NCBI GenBank assembly: GCA_010093605.1
Contig: MU004192.1
Location: 943,774-1,007,773 of the forward strand
From: Lophium mytilinum
Lineage: Eukaryota; Ascomycota; Dothideomycetes; Mytilinidiales; Mytilinidiaceae
DNA: 64,000 nucleotides
Direction of reading: 5' to 3'
The notes below the pieces were generated by a model. It had not been told where the DNA came from. It did not search any database and saw only the letters and a program-made list of their open reading frames with translations. Made by a program: the position numbers and the translations under genes. Position 1 is the stretch's first letter, and every line of letters starts with the position of its first letter. This document shows, piece by piece, positions 9,004-11,071 of this stretch.

Positions 9004-9720
9004 CTACTGAATTGTGGTGTTCGTGCCTGCAATCTCTAAGAGCTTCGGGTGCGCCTCCAAGTCCGCTGGATGTGAAAGATCCCGACACATTCCACCCATG
9101 CAAAGCAGCCCGGGGCAGCAACCATGGCCATTGTAGAGGTGACCTACGCAGCCTCCTTGTGCAGATACACAATCCTCAGTCCTCCGTTTGTGGCCGCAAT
9201 CACCGGGTTCTGCCAGACCACAGAGCGTCAAAGTAATAGACAGACCATATTGGCATTGAGTGGTCCCATTGCCGGTTCCCTTCGGATCCTTCCAGTTGAC
9301 GCCAGTCGGCCAAGTGATGTCGTCTCCGCAGCCGGTCACCGATAATGGGCTTCCGTCAAAGGGATGTCCGTTGAGTTCGTGGAGGTTCATCCAAAGCTTG
9401 GGTGGCTCGGCGTTGTACTGCAGCAGGAGCTGTGGAGAGTTTTTGACGAAGAGGCCATTGGGTTCGCGGGTGATCTTGATGGCAACGCCAGCCCTTTTTT
9501 TCGCATCGACGTGCTTCCTGCCATCGACGTGGATATCTTCGGTGTATTCCTCATTGGGCTGGACAACCTCAGGGCCGCTGGACTTGCTGTCGACGGTCCA
9601 GATGTAGACCGGTTTGTCACACTCGTTCCTGACATTGGCGGTACCTTTGCTGGCGACTGCTGGGATGGATGAAAGAACCGAGAGGAGACAGACAGACGAC
9701 AGGATCATGGTGGAGTGCAT
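9004..9720 (-). CDS. Secreted BYS1-family protein with C-terminal cysteine-knot-like module, 238 aa
   Basis: I start at the ATG at 9720; a longer frame would begin with a non-ATG codon. Residues 1-24 are a signal peptide (MILSSVCLLSVLSSIPAVAS). Residues 26-170 match the BYS1 family (Blastomyces yeast-phase-specific protein; thaumatin-like beta fold): NECDKPVYIWTVDS, GVAIKITREPNGL, LWMNLHELNGHPFDGSPL, ITWPTG, and a closing LTLCG. Unlike the neighbour at 10.5-11.1 kb it does not stop there. A basic run HKRR (177-180) precedes a module with Cys at 184, 191, 201, 202, 207 and 212, spaced C-x6-C-x9-CC-x4-C-x4-C, the inhibitor-cystine-knot pattern. The last 24 residues are polar with one NTT glycosylation site. 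Kex2 release of the module is inference. Confidence 0.85.
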   Translation of the reverse strand: MHSTMILSSVCLLSVLSSIPAVASKGTANVRNECDKPVYIWTVDSKSSGPEVVQPNEEYTEDIHVDGRKHVDAKKRAGVAIKITREPNGLFVKNSPQLLLQYNAEPPKLWMNLHELNGHPFDGSPLSVTGCGDDITWPTGVNWKDPKGTGNGTTQCQYGLSITLTLCGLAEPGDCGHKRRTEDCVSAQGGCVGHLYNGHGCCPGLLCMGGMCRDLSHPADLEAHPKLLEIAGTNTTIQ

Positions 9721-10528: not shown

Positions 10529-11071
10529 TCACGATCTTTCATTGCTGTGACAAATTAGTTTCAGTCTGTAGTTGTAATGGAAGAGTAAACGGTGAGGTAC
10601 CGTCTGACCACACAGAGCCAGCCAAAGGCTGGTGTCATCAGCACACGCCTGCGTTTGGCTACCAGCTGGAGGAATTCCCTCGGGCCAAGCGATGGACGGG
10701 CACTCTTGTTTGGCATACAGTAAAACGGTCTCATTCGCAAAAGGATCTCCAAAGACATCAGAGAGATCATAATAAACGGTGTGGTTTGCCGTGTCCAGAG
10801 CGTATGCGAAATTCAGTTGCGGGCTAGCATCGTAGAGGCCATTGTCTTTCGTCGTGACTTTGATAGAAATGCCACCAGCCTTATCATCGTAGTGTATGCT
10901 TTCATTATAGATGCTGTATTCATGGAGCGTAGTCTTGGGTCCAATGGCTGAGCCAACAGACCAGATGAAAATGTCGTGATCGCAGGCGTTGACGACGTAT
11001 GCTATTCCTACTCCAAATATTGATGGGATTGACGCTGCGAGAGCGAAGATGATAGCTAGGAGAGAACGCAT
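10529..11071 (-). CDS. Secreted BYS1-family protein, 180 aa
   Basis: The ATG at 11071 starts a signal peptide (MRSLLAIIFALAASIPSIFG). The mature part follows the BYS1 layout: YVVNACDHDIFIWSVGS, GGISIKVTTKDNGLYDASPQ, a YDLSDVFGDPFAN turn matching the NLHELNGHPFDG segment of the neighbour, SIAWPEGIPP and LWLALCG. It is single-exon. After the conserved final Cys about 25 residues follow (QTVPHRLLFHYNYRLK...) that look non-conserved. It is the paralogue of the 9.0-9.7 kb gene, in the same orientation. The two are clearly diverged, so the duplication is not recent. The likely site of action is the cell wall or outside the cell. Confidence 0.8.
   Translation of the reverse strand: MRSLLAIIFALAASIPSIFGVGIAYVVNACDHDIFIWSVGSAIGPKTTLHEYSIYNESIHYDDKAGGISIKVTTKDNGLYDASPQLNFAYALDTANHTVYYDLSDVFGDPFANETVLLYAKQECPSIAWPEGIPPAGSQTQACADDTSLWLALCGQTVPHRLLFHYNYRLKLICHSNERS

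What the first reader, a model, noticed from the sequence alone, without database searches (positions are those of the whole stretch)
9004..9720. BYS1 protein fused to a knottin-like cysteine module behind a dibasic site
After a complete BYS1 domain the protein continues with HKRR (177-180) and six cysteines spaced C-x6-C-x9-CC-x4-C-x4-C, the inhibitor-cystine-knot pattern. Kex2-type cleavage would release a peptide of about 58 residues. The neighbouring paralogue lacks the module. A secreted protein in which a BYS1 domain acts as carrier for a small disulfide-rich peptide is, to my knowledge, not a described architecture. Cys pattern and dibasic site are seen; release and function are inferred.
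Basis: partly seen in the sequence, partly recalled or inferred. Interest (0 to 1): 0.75.

Follow-up and report, generated by a model that had tools for sequence, protein, structure and literature searches.

The report
BYS1 protein with C-terminal knottin-like module
A fungal gene encodes a secreted-looking BYS1 protein that continues, behind a likely protease cutting site, into a small six-cysteine stretch with the spacing of knotted peptides, an unusual pairing that may serve to make and release a tough small peptide, though release and function are not shown.

Summary
Window 9004-9720 (-) is one open frame of 238 aa: signal-like start, nearly full-length BYS1 domain (PF04681, E 2e-28), HKRR at 177-180, then C-x6-C-x9-CC-x4-C-x4-C. 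Two solved venom peptides align without gaps, all six cysteines in register. The loose pattern arose in 22 of 2,000,000 random tails, the exact one in 0. Of nine BYS1 loci found in this genome (a lower bound) only this one has the module.

The genome has a Kex2-type P-domain. AlphaFold models are of low confidence (pLDDT 55 and 44): both show a hairpin, neither proves a knot. One of two Cys-preserving shuffles matched a solved conotoxin better than the real sequence did, so the matches show framework, not homology. Codon evidence for the module is weak.

Best reading: a Kex2-processed knottin-type precursor with a BYS1 domain as pro-region; a new variant of a known kind. No fungal collection was available, so conservation is untested.

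The parts
9004..9720 (-). ORF of 238 aa in one open frame: signal-like sequence + BYS1 domain + polybasic linker + six-Cys module + tail
   Evidence: no intron with the donor, branch and acceptor classes scanned inside the ORF
9649..9720 (-). N-terminal signal-like sequence, residues 1-24
   Evidence: read by eye from the translation; no signal-peptide program was available
9220..9669 (-). BYS1 domain, residues 18-167
   Evidence: Pfam PF04681.18, E 2e-28, profile 4-144 of 145
9493..9501 (-). KKR, residues 74-76 (P4 would be Ala73): Kex2-type site inside the BYS1 domain, directly behind a 7-residue stretch (67-73) that the neighbour lacks; the neighbour has DKA at these three places
   Evidence: low-confidence segment 65-77 in a model that is mostly of low confidence
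9196..9198 (-). Cys175, extra cysteine between the BYS1 domain and the polybasic site
9181..9192 (-). HKRR, residues 177-180, candidate Kex2 site
9085..9171 (-). six-Cys ICK-type module, residues 184-212, C-x6-C-x9-CC-x4-C-x4-C
   Evidence: gapless match to 5FZX and 2N7F; hairpin at 205-208/211-214 in both low-confidence models
9007..9084 (-). C-terminal tail, residues 213-238, with sequon N234-T-T
10529..11071 (-). neighbouring BYS1 paralogue without the module (a candidate 56-nt intron, 10600-10545, lies near its end)

Best explanation
The gene encodes a secreted precursor. Shown from sequence: one open frame with a signal-like start, a BYS1 domain, a polybasic linker and an ICK-type six-cysteine module. 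Inferred: the chain enters the ER, the BYS1 domain folds on its own cysteines and the module folds as a cystine knot (1-4, 2-5, 3-6). A Kex2-type protease of the late Golgi cuts after Arg179 or Arg180. A peptide of about 58 residues, self-contained in six cysteines, is released or stays loosely attached, and the BYS1 domain acts as a folded pro-domain or carrier. Outside the cell the peptide would act as a stable binder (antimicrobial, inhibitor or host-directed); which one is open.
For: BYS1 hit and module in one frame. Exact ICK spacing, rare by chance. Gapless, Cys-in-register match to two NMR-solved venom peptides, 5FZX and 2N7F (that these are ICK folds is recalled). Two runs of the same predictor, both of low confidence, place a beta hairpin at 205-208/211-214, where ICK peptides have one (recalled). 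Of 16 weak Foldseek hits of the module model, 11 are spider, scorpion or cone-snail venom peptides and one a cyclotide. All six cysteines lie behind the polybasic site. The genome holds one P_proprotein domain (PF01483, E 5.2e-29, open frame 913 aa; its protease domain was not tested). No intron of the scanned classes removes the module. Kex2 processing of fungal effector pro-domains (PMC8528282, parts 1 and 2 of 3 read) and of Ywp1 (PMC6258133, abstract and section list) is published.
Against: Models have pLDDT 55.1 and 44.4 and no disulfide geometry could be measured; the best Foldseek E is 1.6, the tool warns that low-confidence models give meaningless matches, and no control was run for it. 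HKRR has His at P4 (Gly176 if the cut is after Arg179), while AKKR inside the BYS1 domain has Ala. An odd cysteine is left over. One of two Cys-preserving shuffles matched a conotoxin at E 0.0028, better than the real sequence (0.26), the other matched nothing: no homology to any knottin is shown. Codon signal over 169-216 is poor: own frame -0.31, below frame +1 (-0.02) and two of three reverse frames (0.01, -0.10). GC3 is 0.48, and the synonymous score lies at the 17th percentile of windows from frames taken as coding. No homologue of the module was found, in collections where fungi are absent or not expected, and no Pfam family matches it. Dibasic motifs also occur inside other BYS1 domains here (L010, L011). 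No expression data.
Confidence: 0.55

Rival explanations
1. A two-domain secreted protein that is not cut: the knottin-like module is a permanent C-terminal disulfide-rich domain carried by the BYS1 domain, the polybasic stretch being only a linker.
For: HKRR lacks an aliphatic P4 (motif rule in PMC8528282), and Cys175 lies close by. The BYS1 domain itself holds a KKR site, and the BYS1 frames of L010 and L011 hold RR inside the domain, so dibasic motifs here need not be used.
Against: The module's cysteines are even in number and all lie behind the site; KRR meets the P1/P2 rule; a P_proprotein domain is present in the genome.
Confidence: 0.25
2. The module is not in the mature mRNA or protein: a gene-model artefact (an intron, or 3'UTR read through) or a recent de novo extension by stop loss.
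For: GC3 over 169-216 is 0.48, against 0.67 in the BYS1 part. The own-frame codon score over the module is below that of three of the five other frames, with a coding-like tail after it (0.32). In-frame GT..AG pairs with weak signals exist. No copy was found elsewhere.
Against: No intron of the donor, branch and acceptor classes scanned lies inside the ORF. Exact ICK spacing arose in 0 and loose spacing in 22 of 2,000,000 random tails. GC3 this low occurs in 16% of 127 windows from frames taken as coding.
Confidence: 0.12
3. Kex2 also or mainly cuts inside the BYS1 domain at AKKR76, giving a two-chain BYS1 protein; the C-terminal module is secondary.
For: AKKR has basic P1 and P2 and an aliphatic P4 (rule). 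It directly follows a 7-residue stretch absent from the neighbour, which has DKA in place of KKR.
Against: The loop may be buried or structured in the folded domain; the model is too poor to tell; no experimental data.
Confidence: 0.08

Closest known systems
Kex2-processed pro-domain (K2PP) effectors, e.g. SnTox3, SIX1/4/6 (PMC8528282, parts 1 and 2 of 3 read)
   Same: N-terminal region, Kex2-type motif, then the presumed active part
   Different: published pro-domains are typically N-terminal, often lack secondary structure, and were sought in the first half of the protein; here the region before the site is a recognised domain family and the site is at 177-180 of 238
Fungal knottins: Avr9 / KNOTTIN 'Fungi1' family and Histoplasma yeast-phase knottins (PMC4503680, passages); AvrP4 homologue MLP124266 (PMC6889267, passages)
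   Same: secreted, C-terminal six cysteines with ICK spacing
   Different: no BYS1 domain is mentioned in the passages seen; sequence relation could not be tested here
BYS1 family PF04681 (Blastomyces yeast-phase-specific protein)
   Same: domain covered from profile 4 to 144 of 145
   Different: the other eight loci found in this genome have no such six-Cys tail
U5-scytotoxin-Sth1a (PDB 5FZX) and muO-conotoxin MfVIA (PDB 2N7F)
   Same: same cysteine spacing, gapless alignment
   Different: animal venom peptides; E 0.26 and 0.93, no evidence of common descent

Membership tests
BYS1 (PF04681) | match over the curated cut-off, near full length | tested here: met
   99.7 bits against 24.3, profile 4-144/145
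Inhibitor cystine knot (knottin) | six cysteines with ICK spacing | tested here: met
   gapless with 5FZX and 2N7F; fits the range Cys-X2-7-Cys-X3-10-Cys-X0-7-Cys-X1-17-Cys-X4-19-Cys quoted in PMC6889267
Inhibitor cystine knot (knottin) | disulfides 1-4, 2-5, 3-6 forming a true knot with a small beta sheet | tested here: inconclusive
   hairpin predicted, but pLDDT 55 and 44; bonds not measurable; Foldseek best E 1.6
Known knottin sequence families | profile match | tested here: not met
   no Pfam family for the module at E <= 10 and no NCBIfam family; PF07740 and PF11410 over the genome gave two matches each, none over cut-off and none at this locus
Kex2-processed pro-domain effectors | Kex2 motif (KR or RR) between pro-region and mature part; convertase in the genome | tested here: met
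   HKRR (the P4 preference is not met); P_proprotein hit
Kex2-processed pro-domain effectors | site in the first half, behind a disordered pro-domain (search rule of the published screen) | tested here: not met
   the site is at 177-180 of 238 and follows a BYS1 domain
Kex2-processed pro-domain effectors | cleavage shown and pro-domain absent from the secreted form | not testable with these tools
   needs secretome mass spectrometry

The most novel reading that the evidence does not exclude
BYS1 domains serve, at least in this fungus, as reusable carriers or pro-domains for Kex2-released C-terminal peptides of unrelated kinds: here a knottin, at L007 a His-rich tail behind SKR, at L012 an Arg-rich tail behind PRR (3 of the 9 BYS1 loci found). 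This would give the BYS1 domain, whose function a paper seen here calls unknown (PMC5412055, passage), a first general role.
Probability: 0.15. Interest if true: 0.65.

Novelty: new variant of a known kind. Interest (0 to 1): 0.42.

Why it matters
[quoted passage not shown] A BYS1 domain placed in front of a knottin-type module and a convertase site gives a direct test of whether the domain can act as a folding or transport partner for a disulfide-rich peptide. It also points to candidates that a screen restricted to the first half of a protein, as in PMC8528282, would miss.

Tried and rejected
Pfam and NCBIfam searches of the isolated module: no family. PDB sequence search of the 45-residue core: three venom peptides, E 0.26 (5FZX), 0.31 (2KNI), 0.93 (2N7F). 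Controls: full shuffle 1 hit a methylcrotonoyl-CoA carboxylase chain (E 1.3) and potassium channel toxin alpha-KTx 6.9 (E 1.6); full shuffle 2 hit an endoglucanase (E 6.9). Cys-preserving shuffle 1 hit conotoxin TVIIA (E 0.0028) and U1-TRTX-Sp1a (E 0.75); Cys-preserving shuffle 2 hit nothing. The PDB matches therefore reflect the cysteine framework, and descent from animal toxins is set aside as unsupported. Hevein/CBM18 was considered and set aside: its spacing differs (recalled), and no Pfam hit arose. Relatives of the whole protein: none in viral contigs; in genome contigs 143 pattern matches, none confirmed; little else was to be expected, the first being viral and the second bacterial and archaeal. 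Naming the organism by rDNA failed: no 5.8S hit. Codon statistics were too weak to decide whether the module is coding. One search read the minus-strand loci on the wrong strand; four were redone and all nine. The searches for Kex2 with knottin (2 papers) and for ICK with Kex2, propeptide and carrier (119 papers, 15 listed) gave no listing that named this architecture.

Full report
Observation. The minus strand of window 9004-9720 holds one open frame of 238 residues. Pfam finds one family, BYS1 (PF04681.18), E 2e-28, 99.7 bits against a cut-off of 24.3, residues 18-167, profile 4-144 of 145. Residues 177-180 are HKRR. Two features were not reported. Cys175 lies between the domain and the basic site, so a mature chain from about residue 25 has 11 cysteines: five before the basic site and six behind it. 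A second Kex2-type motif, AKKR (73-76), lies inside the BYS1 domain. It directly follows a 7-residue stretch (67-73) that the neighbouring paralogue lacks; in the alignment the neighbour has DKA opposite KKR.

Chance. The loose CC-type ICK pattern occurs once in the six-frame window, and so does the exact spacing, at the same place. In 60 dinucleotide shuffles the loose pattern occurred in 7 (mean 0.12) and the exact one in 0. Of 2,000,000 random 70-codon tails from a first-order model of the window, read to the first stop, 22 had the loose and 0 the exact pattern. Permuting the 70 residues behind the domain 200,000 times gave 893 loose, 6,717 with any six-Cys ICK spacing, 28 with a dibasic site close ahead of a loose pattern, and 0 exact. 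Given seven cysteines, some ICK-like spacing is only moderately surprising (3% for the widest pattern); to have the seven cysteines there, so spaced, is unlikely for a chance reading of non-coding DNA.

Gene model. A scan with three donor classes, a CTRAY-type branch and a YAG acceptor, lengths 45-160, found no intron inside the ORF. Weaker in-frame GT..AG pairs exist, with TTCAC as the only branch-like motif. Codon statistics do not settle it. They were trained on 13 long open frames of the window, 6 of which carry a Pfam match. Over residues 169-216 the own frame scores -0.31, below frame +1 (-0.02) and two of three reverse frames (0.01, -0.10). The BYS1 part (0.17) and the last 22 codons (0.32) look coding; the signal stretch does not (-0.13). 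Over 177-238 the own frame scores -0.11, between the coding mean (0.15, sd 0.14) and the off-frame mean (-0.24, sd 0.13), with one reverse frame a little higher (-0.07). In a synonymous-only score the module is at the 17th percentile of 127 windows, and its GC3 of 0.48 is reached or undercut by 16% of them. This is weak evidence against a well-settled coding stretch, and it leaves room for a recent extension.

Context in the genome. Nine BYS1 matches ring at E <= 1, all over the cut-off; the tool calls such counts lower bounds. I read the open frame of each without modelling introns; L010 and L011 had no Met ahead of the domain in frame. Behind the matched stretch the other eight have 0 to 29 residues, except L013, whose match stops at profile position 94 and whose frame runs on for 69 residues with five cysteines and no CC, which I take for the rest of its domain. 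Only this one of nine has the six-Cys module. Two others have a dibasic site behind the domain with a different tail: L007 (SKR, then a His-rich stretch) and L012 (PRR, then an Arg-rich stretch). Whether three of nine exceeds chance was not tested, and L010 and L011 have RR inside the domain. L007, L010, L011 and L013 have more cysteines than the neighbour's domain, so extra cysteines as such are not rare in the family, but this tail is. The module itself gave only its own place at E <= 10 in the genome. Pfam Toxin_12 and Antifungal_pept gave two matches each, none over cut-off and none here. The flanking genes look ordinary: of 58 open frames of at least 110 residues listed I sent 10 to Pfam, and 8 matched (TFIIH p62-type, Sds3 twice, short-chain dehydrogenase twice, protein kinase, CDC45, fungal rhodopsin).

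Structure. PDB sequence search of the 45-residue core gave three hits at E <= 10: 5FZX (0.26), 2KNI (0.31) and 2N7F (0.93), venom peptides that I know as ICK folds (recalled). The first and third align without gaps, cysteines in register. The controls qualify this: one of two shuffles that kept the cysteines in place hit conotoxin TVIIA at E 0.0028, the other hit nothing. Two full shuffles hit a carboxylase chain and an alpha-KTx scorpion toxin (E 1.3 and 1.6), and an endoglucanase (6.9). The match speaks for the framework and says nothing about ancestry. AlphaFold of residues 177-238 alone gave pLDDT 55.1, with strands at 205-208 and 211-214 and short bridges at 184-185 and 200-201. The full-length model, with a two-sequence alignment, gave pLDDT 44.4, the module below 50, and the same hairpin. 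The tool warns that low-confidence models give meaningless matches, and I ran no control. These results agree with an ICK but do not establish it. Coordinates, and so sulfur distances, were not available.

Mechanism. The genome has one P_proprotein domain, the mark of Kex2-type convertases (E 5.2e-29, open frame 913 aa); its protease domain was not tested. By the published motif (P1 Arg, P2 preferably Lys, then Arg and others, P4 aliphatic; PMC8528282, parts 1 and 2 of 3 read), HKRR meets P1 and P2 but not P4, whereas AKKR meets all three. Cutting after Arg180 would leave a peptide with a complete set of six cysteines (residues 181-238, 58 residues, one sequon at N234) and a carrier with five. 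That division favours release over a permanent fusion, but the odd cysteine is unexplained. The pro-region need not leave: the Ywp1 propeptide stays bound after Kex2 cleavage (PMC6258133, abstract). What the peptide does cannot be read from the sequence. Knottins reported or predicted in fungi include effectors and antimicrobial-like or toxin-like peptides (PMC4503680, PMC9632046, PMC12099005, PMC6889267; passages).

Comparison and novelty. Fungal knottins, Kex2-processed pro-domain effectors and BYS1 proteins are each known. Their combination was not met in the searches made: 'BYS1' with 'knottin' 0 papers, 'BYS1 domain' 9, 'BYS1' with 'Blastomyces' 9, any of four family names 60, 25 listed, many of them unrelated. 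Of these listings I saw passages of two papers only (PMC5412055, PMC5795981), and the library holds open-licence papers alone. The Venturia effector paper has no occurrence of 'Bys1' or 'Kex2' in its main text. No fungal sequence collection was available, so whether the architecture is common among fungi is not known. I file it as a new variant of a known kind. On checking, I corrected the place of the KKR site relative to the neighbour, the frame comparison, the shuffle controls and the description of the other BYS1 tails; none required a change of odds.

Noticed in passing
L007 (G000:C19:141603-142064, +), tail behind the BYS1 domain: A BYS1 protein with SKR followed by a His-rich tail of 21 residues ending in VRR: another possible Kex2-released C-terminal peptide.
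   Followed up: partly
L012 (G000:C24:117955-118227, -): A BYS1 protein ending in an Arg-rich tail with PRR and HRRR; a second BYS1 match (L009) lies about 0.7 kb away on the same strand, a possible tandem pair.
   Followed up: partly
window 10545-10600 (-): Candidate 56-nt intron (GTACCT start, branch-like site 14 bases from the end) near the end of the neighbouring paralogue, which would end the protein soon after its last domain cysteine.
   Followed up: partly
window 9493-9501 (-): Kex2-type AKKR site inside the BYS1 domain of the target, directly behind a 7-residue stretch that the neighbour lacks.
   Followed up: partly
L007, L010, L011, L013: BYS1 frames with more cysteines than the neighbour's domain (6 to 9), suggesting a more disulfide-rich subgroup.
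   Followed up: no
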